Positions 5,920 through 15,600 of a DNA stretch of 64,000 nt are shown one piece after another. Made by a program: the position numbers and the translations under genes. The stretch comes from Trichoderma breve (taxonomy: Eukaryota; Ascomycota; Sordariomycetes; Hypocreales; Hypocreaceae): the NCBI RefSeq assembly GCF_028502605.1, contig NC_079233.1, positions 248,001 through 312,000 on the forward strand. Direction: 5' to 3'. Below the pieces are notes generated by a model. That model saw only the letters and a list, made by a program, of their open reading frames with translations, did no database searches and was not told the origin of the DNA. The stretch's first letter is position 1; every line of letters begins with the position of its first letter.

Positions 5920-7708
5920 ATGGCACTCAACGGTGAGGGAATCATTTCTCGCACGGCACAAGACGCAGGCGAGGATGAGCAGTTGAGACTAAGCAATTGG
6001 GAAAACGAATCGTGGAAGGAATGGCCATCAAAGGCTCAGGTAAACTTTCGCTCACTCTCCTTTTGCTTTCTTATCCAAACTTGACAAAGATGCTGACAGT
6101 AGAACTCTGTAGTTTGAAGGGCTAGAGGAGCATCGTGGACCAGTCCAGCTAAAAGTCAAGGGCACCATTCCATCTTGGGCTGCTGGTTCCTTATTCCGAA
6201 CAGGACCGGGCCTGGACAGAGTGGAGGGCACATCTAGGGGCACTCATTTTATTCACCATTGGTTTGATGGTATTGCCCACAGCCATCGATTCGACATCGC
6301 CCCCTCTGAATCGGCCGAGGGCAGCTCAACCGTCACGTATTCCTCTCGTCGACATGCCGATGCTGTCGTTGCCGAAATTAAAGAAAAGGGCTGGCAAACG
6401 AGCCTGTCATTTGCTCAACGCGCCGACCCATGTATTGGCCTATTCGCAAAAGTCATGACCATCTTTCTCCCCAGCAAAGCCAACATCAACGTCACCGTCG
6501 TACCAGACATGCCTGGTGGCGATGATGTGAAGGAAGGAGATGCGTCCAAAGGCAAGGCCCTTTATGTCCTCACTGATAGCGCTACTGTCAGCAAGCTTGA
6601 CCCTAGGACTCTAGAGCCTATTGGGAATGCCAGGCAGAAGTCGCTTCACCCAGACCTAAAGGGTCCAATCTCTTGCGCTCATACACAGCGTGATCCTGAA
6701 ACTGGAGACTTGTTCAACTTTAACCTGGAGCTTTCTTCTCATCCAACCTATCGCATCTTTCGCGTTAATGCCAAGGATGGGAGTGTCGACATTCTGGCGA
6801 CCTTTTCAGATAAAAAGTATCCAGCGGCATACATGCACAGTTTCTTCATGACGGAAAACTACATTGTGTTTTGTGTCCAATCGACGCAATACGCGTGGTC
6901 TGGTTTGAAGATTCCCTGGCAGAGGAATATTCTCGACGCCATCAAGCCATTTGATCCCTCTATTCCGTGCACGTGGGCGGTTGTGGACAGAAGACATGGA
7001 AAGGGCGTTGTCGCAGAATTTTCTACTCCAGCTGGTTTCTTCTTTCACTCGGCCAATGCCTTTGAAGAGGTGGTGACGGATGAAAGCGGGAATAAGCATA
7101 CAGAGATTAACATGGATGCCATCTCTTACACCAACACTGACATCCTGCACATGTTTTACTACGACATCCTTCTCGACCGAGACGGTGCCACGAAGAAGAC
7201 TATGCTTGACAAGAAGTTTTACAAAACCACTGCAAACCGCCTATCGCGATATCGCTTTAGGATCCCGTCGGAGCCACAGTCGGCCAAGGAAAAGGCATCT
7301 GCTGTGGCGGAAGAGGTACTCTCCATTCCCTCACCTCACGTCGGCGAGCTTCCCACTATCCACCCTAAGCGCGCCGGAAAGCCATACCGATATGTCTACA
7401 CTGTAACCAACAGGGGTCTCTACCTCTTTGCAGACTCTATCGCCAAGACGGACACGCACACCCAGGGGGCTCTGATCTGGAGCGGGCCCAAGGGACATTC
7501 ACCCGGAGAGGCGATTTTCGTTCCTCGGCCGGGAGGCACGGAGGAGGATGATGGAGTGCTGCTGTCGGTGGTGTTGGATGGGACTCTGGAGAAGTCGTAT
7601 TTGCTGTGTTTGGATGCGAGGACGATGGAGGAGGTGGGTAGGGCGGAGGCGGATTTTGCGATTCCGCTTAGTTTGCATGGAGCGCACCAAGCTAAGGGAC
7701 ATCTTTGA
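5920..7708 (+). CDS. Carotenoid cleavage oxygenase (RPE65/CCD family)
   Basis: Two exons, 5920-6039 and 6113-7708, give 571 residues. The intron joins KEWPSKAQ to FEGLEEHRGPVQLKVKGTIP. Members are non-haem Fe(II) dioxygenases that cleave a polyene double bond of carotenoids or apocarotenoids. The four iron-binding histidines are recognisable in context: CAHTQRDPETG (about H230), YMHSFFMTENY (H282), FFFHSANAF (H352) and LSLHGAHQ (about H562). The usual GSLFRTGPG motif is also present. Length fits the family. An upstream in-frame ATG at 5791 would add 43 basic residues, but MALNGEG at 5920 has a better context (CAACCATGG). No carotenoid synthase or opsin gene is adjacent, so this is not the classic fungal car cluster, and the exact substrate is unknown. 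Confidence 0.9.
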
Positions 7709-8316
7709 GGGGAGTTGGACTTTTTTTTTTTGTATAGTGTTTTGTGAGGGGAGGGTGCTTTTGCTTTTGCTGATGCAGTTTTGATATCCCTGTAATGTTA
7801 ATTCTCATTATGTACCTGGCTCTTTCAATTTATATTACTCGTTACACTAGTCTGGCCCTTATTTTTGTTCTCCCTCTCTCCTTTCCTTTTGCTCTGGGAA
7901 TGGAGATACAATGAGTATTGCTCTTAATTTGTGAACCAAATTTGATGTCGAGAAGATTTATCGCTGTAATACATCCATCTTCGTTTCGATCCTAGCATCT
8001 CACATCAAACTCATTTTTCGGTGACAGAATGGCAACAAGCCTGGCTGGTCTTATCATTGTATGAAACATCTCCCTAGAAGTCCGTGGAAGGGAGGCACAT
8101 GGTTCACCAATCTGTTTTCATGACAAAATAACTTCGTGTACTGCCTCTATTATCTCAGAGGTGACTATAGAGTTTCACATTTGTCGTATTTAATTCGACA
8201 TAATACGTATCTAGTTCATACGTGGAGCAATGGTTTAATATTTCTCGTCGTTTCCTCAAGCCCTCCACAAGTCTCTTAAATCAACCATACCTTCGTTACC
8301 CAGTCCCATTATCCCT
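7709..8316. other. Intergenic 3' region
   Basis: Convergent 3' flanks of the oxygenase and the first gasdermin-like gene, AT-rich with T runs. No gene or repeat is visible. Confidence 0.5.
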
Positions 8317-8991
8317 CTATGGATGTATTTCCATGCCTGCATAGTCCTCGATAGTTGGCACATTTTTCCGATTAAGGCGAAGTCTGGCGACTTGGAAGGC
8401 AAATAGGATGGGGCCGTCAATCCTTTGCGTGTGTGTGTGATATCTTCCATGATCTTGCCCAGCCTCGGCCTTGATCTGCAAGTCAGGTATTAGAATTCCA
8501 GCGCTCGCTTGGACGATTGTGCTGTTCTCCATTACTTTTATTGTAGTAATGTCCAACGTTTTGGCGATCTTGACGCCGGTGATGATAAAAACCTTATCTC
8601 CCGTTTTAAGAAAAGTCGCAACAGCTGGATCGGCTGCGGCCTTTGCAATAAACTGCGGTGAGAGCGCGAACGTTCGTGTCTCAATCAACTCACAAGTATA
8701 CTTAAACTCCGACGATAACGTCGAAACGTAAGATATCGCGAAGTAAGATTTTATAGCTTGTAACAAGGTCGTGAACAGTCCAATACCCCCTTTACACCAG
8801 TGCTTCATACCGCCCGAGCATCCTTTAACTTCCCAACTGTGTATTTTCTTGTCGATTTCAGTTGGCAGGTCCTTATTAGATATAAACATTTGAGGGGTTG
8901 TAATATCCGCAATGACGCTTCCGAGGGCAATTTCAGATGGGTCTAGATCCCATGTTGGGGCTAAGAAGTAACTTTTCTTGAAAAAATTCAT
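8317..8991 (-). CDS. Gasdermin-like protein (RCD-1/HET-Q1 type), copy 1
   Basis: Predicted 224 residues. The N-terminus (FFKKSYFLAPTWDLDPSE, ALGSVIADITTPQ) and the later block (TRTFALSPQFIAKAAADPAV, KVFIITGVKIAKT) are shared with the copy at 11140-11742 and resemble fungal gasdermin-like proteins. Those form membrane pores and cause regulated cell death after proteolytic removal of a C-terminal tail. FIITGVKIAK sits where animal gasdermins carry a VVTEVLQT-like strand. ATG 8991 is chosen because it aligns with the paralogue. An upstream ATG at 9063 is probably intronic: a 5'-UTR intron 9131-9030 (GTAAGT, CACTAAC, TTGCAG) is well formed. Three ATGs lie in frame near the start (9006 also possible). 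The putative partner protease immediately upstream is a pseudogene. Confidence 0.7.
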   Translation of the reverse strand: MNFFKKSYFLAPTWDLDPSEIALGSVIADITTPQMFISNKDLPTEIDKKIHSWEVKGCSGGMKHWCKGGIGLFTTLLQAIKSYFAISYVSTLSSEFKYTCELIETRTFALSPQFIAKAAADPAVATFLKTGDKVFIITGVKIAKTLDITTIKVMENSTIVQASAGILIPDLQIKAEAGQDHGRYHTHTQRIDGPILFAFQVARLRLNRKNVPTIEDYAGMEIHP

Positions 8992-9029
8992 ATTAGAATA
9001 ATTCATATTAGAATGAGTGTTGAGTAGCT

Positions 9030-9131
9030 CTGCAAGAAACAAAAAGTTAGTGCCATGATTCACATCTGTGTTTGCAGAGTGTACAATGTTTCCACAAGGC
9101 TTCGTTGCTCATGGATCTAGCTGGTACTTAC
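9030..9131 (-). other. Predicted 5'-UTR intron of gasdermin-like copy 1
   Basis: On the minus strand the segment begins GTAAGT, has the branch-like CACTAAC and ends TTTCTTGCAG (102 nt). It contains the first ATG of the long reading frame, so splicing would move translation to 9006 or 8991. Confidence 0.5.
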
Positions 9132-9601
9132 ATTCTTGCGACGCTTCTGTCCCGATGCAAGGATAAAGATCGCTTTATGGCCTCAGTTTGGGGTGGCTGA
9201 ACATAACAAATTTTTGTGATAGATTTGATTTCAGTGGAAAATGGAGCTGTAGAAGAGAGGAATTTATAACGACTGGATGCTTGTCGTACACGGCGCGTAT
9301 ACTGTCGTACATGGCGCCTATACGGCCAATGGAAGAAAAGGCAACCACGTGATAACGCGGTGCTCGTTGAGTTTCAGAATGTTGATGAGAATACAAGTAC
9401 ATTATATCCCAGGTAGTGCCTAGGCTGGCACGGGGGATTCTAAGTACCACGGCGATCGATGAGAAAGCTGTGATATCTCCATGATGACCAATGGTGACCG
9501 CTCTGACGCAACCTTCAGTCCGAAGCGTAGTAAGCAATTTGTAGCTGCACCTCTAGCTGCTGAAGACAACAACGGCTGTTTGACTGTAGCAATGTCGTTG
9601 A
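9132..9601. other. Region between gasdermin copy 1 and the protease remnant
   Basis: No intact gene. Subtilase N-terminal motifs (the Asp and His boxes) would be expected here if the downstream protease remnant were complete. I could not find them in any frame, so the front of the protease is deleted or diverged beyond recognition. Confidence 0.4.
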
Positions 9602-10253
9602 CTAGTCTGGTATCAAACAATCACCCACTTCTCCCAGGAGGGCAAAGACCGCCTTGACATCCTAACTCTGCCAGGCTTTCCCAGGTACGACAACGAACTC
9701 GAACCGATTAGTAGAGCTATTATCAATGCCAATAATGGCGGCATCATTATCTTTGACGCTGCGGGAAACGAGGGTGATAACGCGAGCGTCTTCTGGCCGG
9801 CTTCGGTACAAGAGACGGGCGACGTGATCTGGATCGACTCATCAGATGCCAAGGGCTCGCCCTTGAGCTTTAAACCCAGCCCCGAGACAGGCCGCTGGAT
9901 CTTCACTCTGGACTAAGGTGTCCCATCGTGCGAGATGCAAGTTATGGATGGAGAGCAACGAATTGTTTACCGGAGCGGGAGTTCGTTTGCGACCTCGATC
10001 GCCGCCGCCATTGCGGCTATAATCCTCGGGGTCGTAGATCACGCTGACGTTTCCAAGTATGAAGGGCTGGCTACCCTTCGGCTCGGCTTCGAACACGGCT
10101 GGGAATGGAAAAGGTGCTGTGCGAGACCTGTTGCAGAATGCAGGATCCAAGAGGTTGGAATACTACTACCTCACATCCTGGTCCTTCTTCGAAGACTCAG
10201 AGCAGACGCAGATTCATGTCATTCTGAACACTCTGAGGCATGTCACTTCCTGA
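9602..10253 (+). pseudogene. Subtilisin-like serine protease (S8) remnant, HET-Q2-like
   Basis: The + strand frame from 9602 has the second half of a subtilase: LDILTLPGF (cf. the VDIISMSFG strand), IIFDAAGNEGDNASVFWPAS (the oxyanion-Asn AAxN region), then GSSFATSIAAAIAAIIL, which fits the catalytic-serine box GTSxATPxxAG. A TAA at 9914-9916 interrupts the frame between FTLD and GVPS. Near the A run at 10109-10112 the frame shifts; the tail (GAVRDLLQNAGSKRLEYYYL, then TSWSF) continues in the frame of 10059-10253. The frame is closed by TGA at 9599 and no Asp or His boxes are seen upstream. Subtilases of this kind cleave and activate gasdermin HET-Q1 in Podospora. Lying between two gasdermin-like genes, it looks like a lost activator. 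Confidence 0.8.
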
Positions 10254-10297
10254 GGACATTTGCCAACTGCATCATGTGCATGTCACGCATTGCATGA

Positions 10298-11139
10298 GTT
10301 ACTTATAGTTCAGGGAAGCTGATAGAAAACAGATGCTTAATTGAGTCATCCAGCCAATGCGTGTATAAGGAGAAAAATTTTCTTTCAGCTTGGTGACATA
10401 AGAGATAATCATATTAATTGATCATATTAAAATAACATTCGGTCTTTGCATAAAGATATCTGTAAAAGTAAGATTCATCATATTGCAATACCATTGGGAG
10501 CCATGATTCAAGTCATGGTTGCGCGTATATCTCTCCTTTACGTGTCAAACACATCAAACTACAGCGTTAATACTGTATCATAGATGACGCTTACATTGTG
10601 CATGGAAAATTCAGACTCGACCGGAACACAGGATCAAGACACGCGCATTGCAAACCTAGAGATATATACATCATTCACACATTTTTCACCAATTAAATAT
10701 TCGCTGCCGGGTAGGTTTTATTATATAAAACAATGAGATTGGTTAGTCCTATAGATAATGACCTCAGGTCCCTGTATAAATGAACTCTATACGGCGAAGC
10801 CACATGGTTCATCAATTTATTTTAGAAGCAGGATAATACTGAGGTAGTTGATAATATTCTGGTCGTTGGTATCAATTAACTAGCATAAGCTACTCTTCCT
10901 ATCCAATAGAACGTTCTGCAAACTGGTATTAAAGTCATTAATAAACAAATCAAATAACCCAAACAAACAATTCCATGTATTTCTCCCATTAACTCACAGG
11001 CAACAGCCTTCCACTTGCCGCATTTAATTCGACATACTGCTGGCCTGGTCCATACGTAGAGCGGCGAGCTGTCAATTCTGGTTGCTGTTGCTATCAATGC
11101 CAAATTCTGTCGGCCAGGCCAGTAGCTTCAATCGTGAGC
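10298..11139. other. AT-rich intergenic region
   Basis: AT-rich stretch between the protease remnant and gasdermin copy 2 with many TATATA and AATTAAT motifs. No protein-like frame or RNA gene was recognised. Confidence 0.5.
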
Positions 11140-11742
11140 TCATCCATCCTGTTCAAAAATAGCACCGTCTACATAGCTCTCGATGGTTGGCTCACCATCC
11201 GAAGTGAGGAAAAGCCGTTTGACTTTAAAGCCAAGTATGGTGGGACCATCAAATTCTTTTTCGTGAGTGACTATGCCCTCTTCCTCTAGAGTTTCAGAAA
11301 TGGAGAAGATTTTAGTCGTCTTGAGTCCAGTGATCACAAAGACCTTCGCAGCGTCCCCGATTTCGAGACGAGACTTGACAGCTGGGTCAGCCGCAGCCTT
11401 TGCGATAAACTCGGCTGACGGTTGGAAGAGTCGTGTCTTGACCCAGCCAATCTCATATTCAATGACTGACGCCGAGGCGGGAGGTTCCTCAAGGCCATCG
11501 AGCATAATTCGTCTGAAGGCTGAGTAGCGGCTAGTGTCAAATCCCCCGCTCCGTATGAACCCTGCCGTGGGTTCGACCTCCGCAAGTTTGTATACTTTTG
11601 TGTCGATGTGGATTGAAAGATCTTCATTCGGTTTGATCCTTTCCAGCGTTGTGACATCCGCGATAACGCTTCCGAGCGGCATGTCAGACTCTTGTTGACC
11701 CAGAGATGGGACCAAGAAGTAAGACTCGCGAAAGGAAGGCAT
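11140..11742 (-). CDS. Gasdermin-like protein (RCD-1/HET-Q1 type), copy 2
   Basis: Predicted 200 residues, intronless. SFRESYFLVPSLGQQESD, MPLGSVIADVTTLERIKP and FIAKAAADPAVKSRLE, then KVFVITGLKTTKIFSI, align with copy 1. Copy 2 is shorter in the middle, lacking copy 1's cysteine-rich segment. It ends in YVDGAIFEQDG. The ORF could start at ATG 11877, but a minus-strand TATATAAG at 11885-11892 puts the transcript start downstream of it, which favours ATG 11742 (MPSFRES). The inferred function is a pore-forming cell-death executor kept inactive by a C-terminal segment. It is divergent from the PNP/beta-trefoil gene starting at 12325, 582 nt away. Which copy is functional, and what would cleave it, cannot be told from sequence. 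Confidence 0.7.
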   Translation of the reverse strand: MPSFRESYFLVPSLGQQESDMPLGSVIADVTTLERIKPNEDLSIHIDTKVYKLAEVEPTAGFIRSGGFDTSRYSAFRRIMLDGLEEPPASASVIEYEIGWVKTRLFQPSAEFIAKAAADPAVKSRLEIGDAAKVFVITGLKTTKIFSISETLEEEGIVTHEKEFDGPTILGFKVKRLFLTSDGEPTIESYVDGAIFEQDG

Positions 11743-11884
11743 GTTGAGAATGTTGCTTCTTGGGTAGAATGAATGAATATAAAACGGTCGTACGTCGTAT
11801 CGATGATGTTTATATGCGGGTGTGAATGATTTAGGCTCATGTATAGCTTGACTACCTGGATCAGAATGAAGGTTCAAGACTCAC

Positions 11885-11892
11885 CTTATATA
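11885..11892 (-). promoter_or_regulatory. TATA box of gasdermin-like copy 2
   Basis: TATATAAG on the minus strand, about 145 nt upstream of ATG 11742. It is the clearest core-promoter motif in this block. Confidence 0.45.
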
Positions 11893-12038
11893 TGTATGAG
11901 CTGTCCACATATTCCTTTCAGCAACTCAGTATTGGCTGCCTGCGATTATTGGTTGTTTCCTTTTGAACAAAGACTGCCGCTGTTGTTGAGAAGGAGGGGG
12001 TAGCATTCTCCAATCAGGCGCCATCTTGCGCTTCCGCG

Positions 12039-12272
12039 GCATTTCTTTGTTCAGATTTTCTTTGCTCAGACCTTCTTTATCTGAACTTTCTTTGTTTACA
12101 CCTTGTTTGCTAGTATGTCAGGAGGTCTTGAACTTCCACCAATAGTATGCTTCGTACACTTGTACGACTTTTCTTAGTTTTGACTTTTCAAAATTTAGAA
12201 CTTCTCTGTCCACACTCTTCTTGTTCACACTTTCTCTATTTACACTCTCCTTGTTCACACTCTCTTCAAGAC
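12039..12272. repeat. Degenerate 15-bp minisatellite in two blocks
   Basis: Two blocks (about 12039-12110 and 12199-12272) of imperfect 15-nt units near CTTTCTTTGTTCACA, separated by about 90 nt of unrelated sequence. On the minus strand the second block reads as repeated five-residue units of the type ESVNK/ESVNR, in an open frame 12318-12118. The unit length is a multiple of three and the minus frame stays open, but no family match supports a gene. The repeat sits in the divergent promoter between gasdermin copy 2 and the PNP/beta-trefoil gene. Confidence 0.65.
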
Positions 12273-12324
12273 TGAAGATATTGATAGGCCCTAGACCCTC
12301 ACCCGACTTACGGTCCACGTCGGG

Positions 12325-15300
12325 ATGTCATCTTCACGGCCCTTTGGGAAGGTAGTGGAGAAGGAATCTCTTGCAGACACGGCCGAAAGAGTATGTCTCC
12401 TACTTGTATGCTGTCAAGAAATTGCAGACGAAAAGATCCAGAGTTTCGCGGCCGTCCAGCTGCTTAGCTTCAACGAGTGGGTTGATGATTACAGAGTCTT
12501 TGCGGCCCAGCACGCATCGCTCGACTATCAACTCCGAACAACCCCCTCCTTTATATCTATTATTGAAAACTACCTTGACACCATCATCGAATGCCTTTTG
12601 GCAAGTAAGTTGACCCAACGTCTCCAAGTAGCGGTTATCAGCTGACATTTTAAACTCAGCTCTCAAGGGGTCTACGGAGGTGTCTGATGATCAAATAGAT
12701 ACCTTTTTAGCCGTCCCCATATCGCATGTCCCCATCATTGCAAGAAATTTGCTGCTAGATTCTGCATTTGATGGCTGCACAAGAACAAAGCAGCTGCAAA
12801 CCGTCGAAGCCCGTATTACCTCGCTTAGCAATCTTTCTTCTCAAATTCGACAAAGAGTTCATCGGCAAAGCTTGGTAGAAATTCCCGAGCTTCTGGACTT
12901 TGATAAGGAATATGTCATCACTCGGGAGCGAATAGGCGATGGTCTTGACTCAGAGTTCCATGTTGATGGCACTCATTTCGATGTTGGGAAAGAGTTTGAG
13001 AAATTCGTCCGAGAGGCTCTGACACACAAGTGGTTTCATTTTCACTCTAATAACGAGAAAAACCTCAGCGAGGAACAAATGAGTTACCGGCAATGGCTCC
13101 TTGAGCGTTGCGTGACGATTATCTCAACACGCAGGCGGCAACTGGCGTGTTTCCGAGCTCACTACAGTCACGAAGAGACATTTGCTTTGAAACAGGTGGT
13201 AACAAGGTTCAAGTTCAAGCCGCCATTGTCGAACTTGGTGCCATCCTCATCTACCTCGATAATCGCTGATGACGGGTTCGGATTCCGATTCGGGGGCCCA
13301 TTCGATGTACCGCAACCGCCGAACCTGGCTGAAAGCGAGGAAGAGACGTCGTGCCCCTACTGTTACCTAGCATTACCAGCCGAAACTTTCTCGGCGCAGA
13401 ACAGTGCAGAGCGCTGGGAGCGGCATCTCCTAGAAGACTTACAGCCGTATATCTGTCTATTTGAGAACTGTGATACCCCTGGAAAGACGTACTCTTCGTT
13501 CAGAATGTGGTAGATGCACCTCCACCATCATCACTACGACAGCTGGGAATGCCATTTACCCATAGAAAACGGCAGCAGAGACGCTATTGATGATGACGTG
13601 GTCACCTTCTACACTTGCGAGAAGTTTGCAATGCATTTCGAGATGGAACATCCTGATCATGATCTATCATCTGTCGAAGACCCGTTCCTGTATAGAAGTC
13701 AGCTGGATGCCTTATCTCAGTGGTGTTTCGTCTGCTGTGAAGCGCTGCCTCAACGCGATATGCTGTTGGAGCACATTGCAAACCATCTCAGATCCATGTC
13801 GTTGTTGGCGCTACCTTGGCGGGACGATATTACAGACAAGGAAGATGTCGCCAGTGAAAAGGCTACTGGCTCGGTTACATCTGACGGCATTGACAACGAC
13901 GGCCCAGGCAAACAGCTTGACGGCGTCGGTCTCTGGGGCTGGGAAGAAACTAAAGAGAGAATAGATAGCCCAGAGAGAAAGCTTGACAAGCACGAATTTG
14001 CTTCCTTGCTTCTGGCGGCGAATGAAACTCCCCAAGACCGCTTACAGGTTCTAGAGCTATGGATTCAAGACACTCGTTTGAGTGGTACAATACAGAGACG
14101 AGCTCGAAGAAACTGGCGGCTATCCTTGAACGTCGTCAGGGTGATTACGGAACTCCGCAAGAACACAATATGGTGGCAAGCGCAGCGTCGGGAAAACCGA
14201 ATCCAAGAGGACATGATTTGGCCTAGAAACTACACAGTTGGATGGATATGCGCATTGCCAGTTAAATTCGCAGTCAGCGAGGGTATGTTCGACCGCCGGC
14301 ATCCCAAACTCCTTCTCATCATAAGGACTGTGATGATTATTCATACACGTTCGGCCGTATCTGGCATCATGATGTTGTGATGGCATGCCTTCCAACTGGT
14401 GAGAATGAAACGGCATGGATATCGGATGTTCTGGATGATATGCAAGAAACCTTTCCATTTCTGCGGCTTTTCTTAATAGTGGGCATTGGGGGTGGCGTTC
14501 CATCTACAGCAAAGGATATTCGGCTAGGAGATGTTTTCGTGGGCGATCCTGCAACCGACGCTGGAGGTGTTGTTGAATATGACTCTGACGAAATCAGTCG
14601 AGGGGGTAAATTTGTGTACAGAAGATTCCCGAATTCGCTTCCTAGGGATTTACGAAATGCAATGGGAACGCTAAAGGCGGATCGCCAACTTGGGCACAAA
14701 CTCTCCGAGCATTTGCAAGGGATGCTCAAGAATTGCAAAAAAATGCAGGCTCAATACAGCCGACCGAGCCCCGAGACTGATGTTCTATTCAGGTTTTACG
14801 AGGATCATCTCGGCGCCGAGGGTGACTGTTCAGCATGCCCCAAAGATCTACTGCAGTCGCGACGAGCTCGTGACTCAGTGCCTATCGTTCACTACGGGTT
14901 AATAGCCTCTGGCGACGAAGTAATGAAACACGGCGAAACGAGAGATGGACTGTCGAGAGAATATGGTATAGAATGCTTTGAGAAGGGGGCAGTTGACCTA
15001 ATATTTGGCTTCCAGTGCCTTGTTATTCGCGGAATCAGCGACTATGCCGATTCGCATAGGAACGACATCTGGCAGCCATACGCAGCAGCAATGGCAGCGG
15101 AATATGCAAAAGAGCTTCTTCACTTTCTTCCTCCGGATACGTCTACATCATTATCTACAGATGTTTGCTATCGCCTCACAAAGCACCAGTCACATACCGA
15201 CAGCATTGAGATCGAAGAAGATCCCACCTCTGCGGATGGCAACATGAGAATTACATTAGCGCCGAACGACGCAAATCAACCCGGAAAGTATTGGAAATTG

Positions 15301-15600
15301 CAGCCGTGTGACACTGAGAGAGCTTGGGTCATCTCTACTTTGGCTTCTCCAGACATGATACTTGGTGTTGGCCCTGGTGATTCGACTCGCCCGTGCCTCT
15401 CCCCAGCAGCTTCTGTCCCTGGACAACGATGGAACATAATCCAAAGAGATGGCGGCGCTGTGAGCCTGCAGGTTAAATGTTTAGGGCATAGAGGATATCT
15501 CTGTGCCAGCGGCTATCCTGCAGAAATAACGCTGTGCGAAGAGGATGAGAATGATGCGTCACAGTTGTGGCGTTTACACGCGACAGTCTTGGCACGCTGA
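12325..15600 (+). pseudogene. C2H2-finger / PNP_UDP / beta-trefoil protein, interrupted by a stop and a frameshift
   Basis: Exon 1 is 12325-12604; the intron 12605-12659 (GTAAGT..CTCAG) joins ECLLA to TLKGSTEVSD. The N-terminal region (FGKVVEKESLADTAERVC, then FAAQHASLDYQLRT) matches a fungal domain common in NACHT or finger proteins. Cys/His pairs follow: CPYCYLAL, YICLFENC, HLHHHHYDSWECHLP. TAG at 13511-13513 breaks this region. A PNP_UDP domain starts at YTVGWICALP, shifts frame near 14318-14326, and resumes as DYSYTFGRIWHHDVVMACLP through VIRGISDYADSH. The usual catalytic FEMEAAGL reads FEKGAVDL. The C-terminus has three QxW-like repeats (KYWKL, QRWNI, QLWRL), a ricin-type beta-trefoil. 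It may be an NLR-like sensor that is now broken, or recent lesions or assembly errors could explain it. Confidence 0.75.

What the first reader, a model, noticed from the sequence alone, without database searches (positions are those of the whole stretch)
8317..11742. Two gasdermin-like genes flank a dead subtilisin-like protease
Both gasdermin-like proteins share the SYFLxP, LGSVIAD and FIAKAAADPAV blocks and have open frames. Between them lies the second half of a subtilase. In Podospora, gasdermin HET-Q1 is controlled by cleavage by the subtilase HET-Q2, and fungal gasdermin genes are commonly clustered with proteases. Here the protease has lost its front, gained an internal stop and shifted frame, leaving the two executors without an obvious local activator. 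Either another protease activates them, or they are moving toward loss. The order gasdermin-protease-gasdermin suggests a duplication around one protease.
Basis: partly seen in the sequence, partly recalled or inferred. Interest (0 to 1): 0.88.

Follow-up and report, generated by a model that had tools for sequence, protein, structure and literature searches.

The report
Tailless gasdermin pair, dead protease
In a Trichoderma mould, two neighbouring proteins of the cell-killing pore (gasdermin) family lack the safety tail that their relatives carry, and the protease and the sensor-like gene beside them are broken; this may be a cell-death switch changing its mode of control.

Summary
Confirmed and extended. 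The window lies in a Trichoderma genome. Both genes (P1 8317-8991-, P2 11140-11742-) encode gasdermin-fold proteins; their models match the fungal gasdermin RCD-1 best. Eight other gasdermins were found in this genome: 6 of 8 neighbour a subtilase, and 8 of 8 end in an acidic tail of 41-55 residues. P1 and P2 are the only two of ten without it. The tail is also missing in P1's three orthologs, in P2's T. simmonsii ortholog and in half of a fused T. compactum model. A remnant of P2's tail is legible after its stop; the same test for P1 was negative. The subtilase is a dead remnant, and the divergent zinc-finger/PNP_UDP-like neighbour is broken too. P1 orthologs keep paralog-conserved sites (p=1.3e-4); P2 is equivocal. 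P2's clade has a shortened second hairpin. Without tails, 'another protease activates them' loses its substrate. Best reading: a protease-controlled cluster decayed towards a protease-independent, RCD-1-like state; simple decay is the main rival. The proposed local duplication around one protease is not supported, since P1 and P2 belong to separate, older clades. Expression and activity are untested.

The parts
8317..8991 (-). P1: gasdermin-fold gene, 224 aa, no C-terminal tail, long second hairpin (55 residues between motifs)
11140..11742 (-). P2: gasdermin-fold gene, 200 aa, no C-terminal tail, short second hairpin (28 residues between motifs)
11048..11098 (-). remnant of P2's tail-coding sequence after its stop, out of frame and with a stop inside; matches the C-terminus of the T. 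aggressivum relative P0010
   Evidence: (score 56; 0 of 300 dinucleotide shuffles as high, shuffle maximum 37)
8178..8228 (-). 3' flank of P1, 76% identical over 51 bp to the 3' flank of P2 (11012-11062)
   Evidence: E = 3e-7; D2
9653..10081 (+). subtilase (S8, HET-Q2-like) remnant: second half only, in-frame TAA at 9914-9916, no front half found; C-terminal end seems to continue in another frame up to 10253 (by eye)
12295..15600 (+). divergent neighbour with a C2H2 finger and a PNP_UDP-like part, broken: TAG at 13511-13513 inside the finger, and a change of frame between 14297 and 14340
   Evidence: (PNP_UDP_1 16.5 bits, below cut-off 25.1)

Best explanation
This is a decayed fungal gasdermin cell-death cluster. 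The ancestral unit had a gasdermin with an acidic inhibitory tail, a convergent HET-Q2-like subtilase that would cut the tail off, and a divergent C2H2 gene of sensor-like make-up. SHOWN by sequence and models: the subtilase and the C2H2/PNP gene are broken; the gasdermin domains are open; the tails are gone in both, and P2's tail was lost secondarily; tail loss is shared by the P1 orthologs and by the nearest P2 relatives; P1 keeps the sites that paralogs conserve. INFERRED: at least P1 works without proteolysis, as a primed, RCD-1-like effector that stays quiet alone and makes pores only when a partner variant arrives, for instance after fusion with a different strain, or when P1 itself is induced. 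P2 is either such a partner or a relic. That the tail of this branch is inhibitory is inferred from HET-Q1.
Against: No expression or activity data. P2's site test is weak (15 of 75 against 39 of 118, p = 0.07), and the same test on tailed type-C genes was not significant either (p = 0.23), so it has little power. Intact database orthologs are a biased sample, because broken copies would not be listed. P1's tail remnant was not found at protein level (153 of 300 shuffles as high). P1's model is only moderately confident (pLDDT 69.8). P1 and P2 lie in one haplotype; if they paired as RCD-1-1 and RCD-1-2 do, the strain would be expected to kill itself when both are made.
Confidence: 0.5

Rival explanations
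1. The whole locus is dying. Protease and sensor-like gene went first, the tails followed, and the two gasdermin frames remain open only because there has been too little time or because nobody lists broken copies.
For: Protease and C2H2/PNP gene broken; tails lost; P2 test weak (p = 0.07); long stem of the P1 clade (0.53).
Against: P1 orthologs avoid changes at paralog-conserved sites (p = 1.3e-4) and all four rows have equal length; tailless frames persist in two separate clades.
Confidence: 0.3
2. P2 is a regulator, not an executioner. Its clade has a second hairpin too short to line a pore and restrains or pairs with the long-hairpin gasdermin beside it, which would let P1 be tailless.
For: Hairpin-2 spacing is 28-32 in 7 of 34 rows (six type-B rows plus own C6:1412), 37-38 in five type-C rows, 40 in the P0013 N-half, and 51-59 in the other 21. 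In 5 of 12 genomes with hits (the window and 11 named Trichoderma), both a P1- or A-type and a B- or C-type gene are listed: this window, one fused model, consecutive tags, and two cases of equal contig lengths.
Against: 7 of these 12 list only one of the two; no binding data; P2 has lost its tail like a decaying copy; tailed short-hairpin relatives (P0009, P0016) exist; own C6:1412 has a short hairpin and no second gasdermin in its 10 kb.
Confidence: 0.12
3. Another protease elsewhere in the genome still activates both, cutting at a site other than the lost tail.
For: One search lists 50 S8 matches in the genome (several can belong to one gene, one is the remnant, and the list is a lower bound); six of the S8 genes lie beside other gasdermins.
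Against: The segment that HET-Q2 removes from HET-Q1 has no counterpart in either protein.
Confidence: 0.06

Closest known systems
RCD-1-1/RCD-1-2 (Neurospora crassa)
   Same: Gasdermin fold, best structural match; no inhibitory C-terminal part; not controlled by a protease in RCD-1, no intact protease beside the genes here; two divergent variants
   Different: RCD-1 variants are alleles of different strains; here two diverged genes sit in one haplotype. P2 has a short second hairpin. Activity unknown here.
HET-Q1/HET-Q2 (Podospora anserina) and Q2L-gasdermin clusters
   Same: Convergent gasdermin-subtilase layout for P2 and the remnant, as in 5 of 6 subtilase-linked loci of this genome; subtilase similar to the gasdermin-linked ones
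   Different: Subtilase dead; no tail to cleave
Other gasdermins of this genome (C3:104115, C5:1039259, C7:810840, C6:850529, C1:6930098, C7:2889513, C3:3989588, C6:1412016)
   Same: Same family by profile (six of the eight were among the sequences the profile was built from, C1:6930098 and C7:2889513 were not)
   Different: All eight have an acidic tail; 6 of 8 have a subtilase neighbour, whose integrity I did not check gene by gene

Membership tests
Gasdermin (pore-forming N-domain) | Gasdermin fold | tested here: met
   P1 and P2 models: top PDB matches are RCD-1 and other gasdermins
Gasdermin (pore-forming N-domain) | Match to Pfam Gasdermin PF04598 above its cut-off | tested here: not met
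   No hit for P1 or P2. None either for five tailed own-genome paralogs, four of them subtilase-linked (L012-L016); the relative P0013 reached 13 bits against a cut-off of 25. The model seems not to reach this branch, so this says little against membership
Gasdermin (pore-forming N-domain) | Two long beta-hairpins per subunit | tested here: inconclusive
   P1 model: strands 51-73/82-107 and 134-165/172-206. P2: second hairpin 134-152/158-179, and spacing 28 against 51-59 in most rows
Gasdermin (pore-forming N-domain) | Makes membrane pores | not testable with these tools
   needs expression
HET-Q1/HET-Q2 type (protease-controlled) | Cleavable inhibitory C-terminal tail | tested here: not met
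   0 of 2 here, 8 of 8 other own-genome gasdermins
HET-Q1/HET-Q2 type (protease-controlled) | Adjacent intact protease | tested here: not met
   front half missing, internal stop
RCD-1 type (protease-independent) | No inhibitory C-terminal part | tested here: met
RCD-1 type (protease-independent) | Death only when two variants meet | not testable with these tools
   needs co-expression
RCD-1 type (protease-independent) | Incompatible haplotypes under balancing selection | not testable with these tools
   no population genomes held

The most novel reading that the evidence does not exclude
The locus is a two-gasdermin device in cis: a tailless, long-hairpin pore former (P1) and a short-hairpin partner (P2) that licenses or restrains it. 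It would have evolved out of a protease-controlled cluster after the protease and sensor died, giving a gasdermin system in which a partner subunit replaces both the inhibitory tail and the protease.
Probability: 0.12. Interest if true: 0.88.

Novelty: new variant of a known kind. Interest (0 to 1): 0.62.

Why it matters
How fungal allorecognition systems such as RCD-1 arose from protease-controlled gasdermins is open. A published model says that pathway parts pseudogenize and leave primed effectors (PMC10197012). This locus looks like that state: two gasdermins without tails beside a dead protease and a broken sensor-like gene, in a genus that can be transformed in the laboratory (recalled). 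It makes the question testable: is P1 silent alone, toxic alone, or toxic only with a partner?

Tried and rejected
Sequence-only identification: Pfam and single-sequence PDB searches gave nothing telling for P1 or P2; the 13-sequence profile gave a HET-Q1 pore only at E = 0.036, with Gasdermin-D at E about 1. Structure models were needed.

PF26164 is shown as a precomputed domain on three relatives, P0011, P0013 and P0022, but the Pfam copy here has no such family, so it was not used.

RIP as the cause of the stops: dinucleotide indices of P1, P2 and the remnant are like those of the whole window and of the other gasdermin genes. Rejected.

Repeats showing that P1 was inserted into the protease gene: (16 nt or longer) gave only short repeats, apart from the shared 3' flanks of P1 and P2.

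Protease front half elsewhere in 7500-12300: not found.

Tail remnant after P1 by protein comparison: no better than shuffles (153 of 300). Only the DNA flank similarity to P2's 3' side stands.

The automatic tail cut misplaced the end of the domain in many rows (P1, P0006, P0010, P0011, own C1:6930098, own C7:2889513 and others); one search repeats it with one anchor per protein, and the tail lengths given here are.

dN/dS: not done, as I had no DNA of other fungi.

Literature, held library only: 'gasdermin + fungal + HET-Q2 + protease' 3 papers; 'gasdermin + Trichoderma' 14, read as a listing; 'RCD-1 + gasdermin + heterotypic' 1; 'fungal gasdermin + zinc finger' 2; 'fungal gasdermin + pseudogene' 6, of which 4 listed; 'RCD-1 + gasdermin + Neurospora + pore' 15, of which 10 listed; 'gasdermin-like + Trichoderma + heterokaryon incompatibility' 4. 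In these listings, and in the passages or sections read of PMC10197012 (section 15 and passages), PMC12881547 (sections 20-21 and passages), PMC10989679 (passages) and PMC11760362 (passages), I saw no description of a tailless gasdermin pair beside a dead protease. No paper was read whole. Clave et al. 2022 is not held and was seen only through reviews.
Full report
WHERE. The window is C2:248001-312000 of a 38.5 Mb assembly with 9 contigs. Its gasdermin proteins are closest to those of Trichoderma (P1: 94% to Trichoderma sp. SZMC 28011, 88% to T. afarasin; P2: 71% to T. simmonsii). The species itself is not named to me.

OBSERVATION. Two open frames on the minus strand, P1 (8317-8991, 224 aa) and P2 (11140-11742, 200 aa), flank a plus-strand subtilase remnant. 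The remnant matches gasdermin-linked subtilases of the same genome from 9653 to 10081, best with the one in L018 (E = 3e-8; the same gene is the best other hit of the first piece in the whole genome, E = 1.3e-4). One TAA interrupts it. The front half, including the DUF7580-type part found in L012, L013 and L017, gave no match in 7500-12300 better than E = 0.05.

THE REST OF THE GENOME. Searches with P1 and P2 and a profile run over fetched loci give eight more gasdermin genes: C3:104115, C5:1039259, C7:810840, C6:850529, C3:3989588, C6:1412016, C1:6930098 (two exons) and C7:2889513. This is a lower bound. Six of the eight lie within about 1 kb of an S8 match: five convergent, one (C7:2889513) in tandem. 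A rough estimate of at least 6 of 8 by chance within 2.5 kb is 1e-12. None of the 18 other S8 loci fetched (L019, L021-L037) shows a gasdermin in frames of 50 codons or more; S8 places that were not fetched are untested. So this branch belongs to the protease-clustered fungal gasdermins; reviews put clustering at about 80% (PMC10197012 section 15 read; PMC12881547 sections 20-21 read). P2 and the remnant keep the convergent layout. P1 lies on the far side, where the front of the protease should be.

TAILS. All eight other own-genome gasdermins continue past the last domain strand with an acidic tail of 41-55 residues, with 10-21 Asp+Glu against 1-4 Lys+Arg. P2 has 3 residues there; P1 ends at about the same point (alignment). 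HET-Q1 loses 40 C-terminal residues on cleavage (PMC10989679 passages). Tree of 34 rows: a Trichoderma clade of 26 rows (100/100) holds P1 and P2. In it, 7 of 26 rows are tailless in two separate places: own_P1 with P0001-P0003, and own_P2 with P0008 and the C-half of a fused T. compactum model, which may be cut by its gene model. The tails of P0010 and P0023 are shortened or altered. After P2's stop, at 11098-11048(-), 17 codons match the end of the T. aggressivum relative P0010, out of frame and with a stop inside (0 of 300 shuffles as high). P2's tail was therefore lost, not absent from the start. For P1 the same test failed (153 of 300); only a 51-bp, 76% DNA similarity between the 3' flanks of P1 and P2 was found.

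CONSTRAINT. Among P1 and its three tailless orthologs, 5 of 73 sites that at least 70% of paralogs share vary, against 38 of 129 other sites (Fisher p = 1.3e-4); all four have 224 residues. For P2 against P0008: 15 of 75 against 39 of 118, p = 0.07. A tailed control group (P0004-P0006): 13 of 95 against 28 of 140, p = 0.23. So P1 looks constrained after tail loss, P2 is undecided, and the test is not powerful. Database proteins are a sample biased to open frames.

SHORT HAIRPIN. The stretch between the TG[V/I/L]K motif and the next domain strand, which holds the second pore hairpin, is 28-32 residues in seven rows (six of P2's clade plus own C6:1412), 37-38 in five type-C rows, 40 in the P0013 N-half (perhaps a gene-model effect), and 51-59 in the other 21 of 34 rows. 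P2's model has a short second hairpin (134-152/158-179) against 134-165/172-206 in P1. P2's type may not line a pore on its own. This is the basis of the partner/regulator reading.

SECOND BROKEN NEIGHBOUR. 12295-15600(+), divergent from P2, encodes a C2H2 finger and a PNP_UDP-like part. The Pfam match of the latter is below cut-off (16.5 against 25.1 bits), but 74 other matches lie in the genome at E up to 0.001. The gene has a TAG where homologs read on (13511-13513), and a change of frame in the PNP part: 44 nt (14297-14340) separate two conserved motifs where a PNP protein of the same window (63 kb) has 14 residues by eye, which leaves no room for an intron. Similar C2H2 genes lie beside other gasdermin loci. 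By motif in the fetched stretches: window, L015, L017, L018, L020, i.e. 5 of 9 gasdermin loci against 1 of 18 S8-only loci (Fisher p = 0.008). Two more (C3:109363 and C5:1044868, at the edge of L012 and just beyond L013) come from the genome search, giving 7 of 9 (p = 3e-4). That list of 18 matches has no further one near the 18 S8-only loci, but it also holds C2H2 genes far from any gasdermin and misses those of L015 and L017, so it is a partial list.

PAIRING. Of 12 genomes with hits (the window and 11 named Trichoderma), 5 list both a P1/A-type and a B/C-type gene: the window, T. afarasin, SZMC 28015, T. harzianum (consecutive tags 08275/08276) and T. compactum (fused). For T. afarasin and SZMC 28015 the same contig is inferred from equal contig lengths only. 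Seven list one only.

MECHANISM. Shown: fold (by model), tail loss, dead protease, broken neighbour, constraint on P1. Inferred: P1 acts without proteolysis. [quoted passage not shown] A published model has allorecognition systems arise by pseudogenization that leaves primed effectors, with the remaining parts lost (PMC10197012 figure legend). This locus fits that model. It does not prove it: two diverged tailless genes in one haplotype either do not pair, are not made together, or are relics.

NOVELTY. Known kind (fungal gasdermin cluster), new variant (tailless pair with dead protease and dead sensor-like gene; short-hairpin gasdermin clade). That Trichoderma carries many rcd-1 homologs, up to 23, is already in print (PMC10989679 passage).

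Noticed in passing
L012, L013, L015, L017, L018, L020 and window 12295-15600: A divergent gene with a degenerate C2H2 finger, in L015 with ankyrin repeats and in the window with a PNP_UDP-like part, neighbours 7 of 9 gasdermin loci; possibly a third member of these clusters.
   Followed up: partly
L017:3787-5496 (+): A DUF7580 frame and a gasdermin frame follow each other in one reading frame with a single stop between, no S8 match there, and no ATG in the gasdermin frame before its conserved start: perhaps a DUF7580-gasdermin fusion across an intron, or a broken gene.
   Followed up: no
Proteins P0004, P0005: Two of the five type-C gasdermins end in a hydrophobic Trp/Leu/Val-rich stretch after the acidic part of the tail, like a membrane anchor.
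   Followed up: no
L019:2916-5634: An S8 gene and a C2H2 gene head to head without a gasdermin in the 10 kb fetched; another effector may sit there.
   Followed up: no
window 12043-12261: Short direct repeats of about 30 nt (two pairs) in the intergenic region between P2 and the broken C2H2/PNP gene.
   Followed up: no
L016:4464-5420 and 6418-8664: A tailed gasdermin beside a large protein with WD40-like repeats (by eye) and no S8 match in the 10 kb.
   Followed up: no
P0014 (contig of 2,839 bases): A Trichoderma-type gasdermin filed under Candidatus Bathyarchaeota, most likely contamination of that assembly.
   Followed up: no
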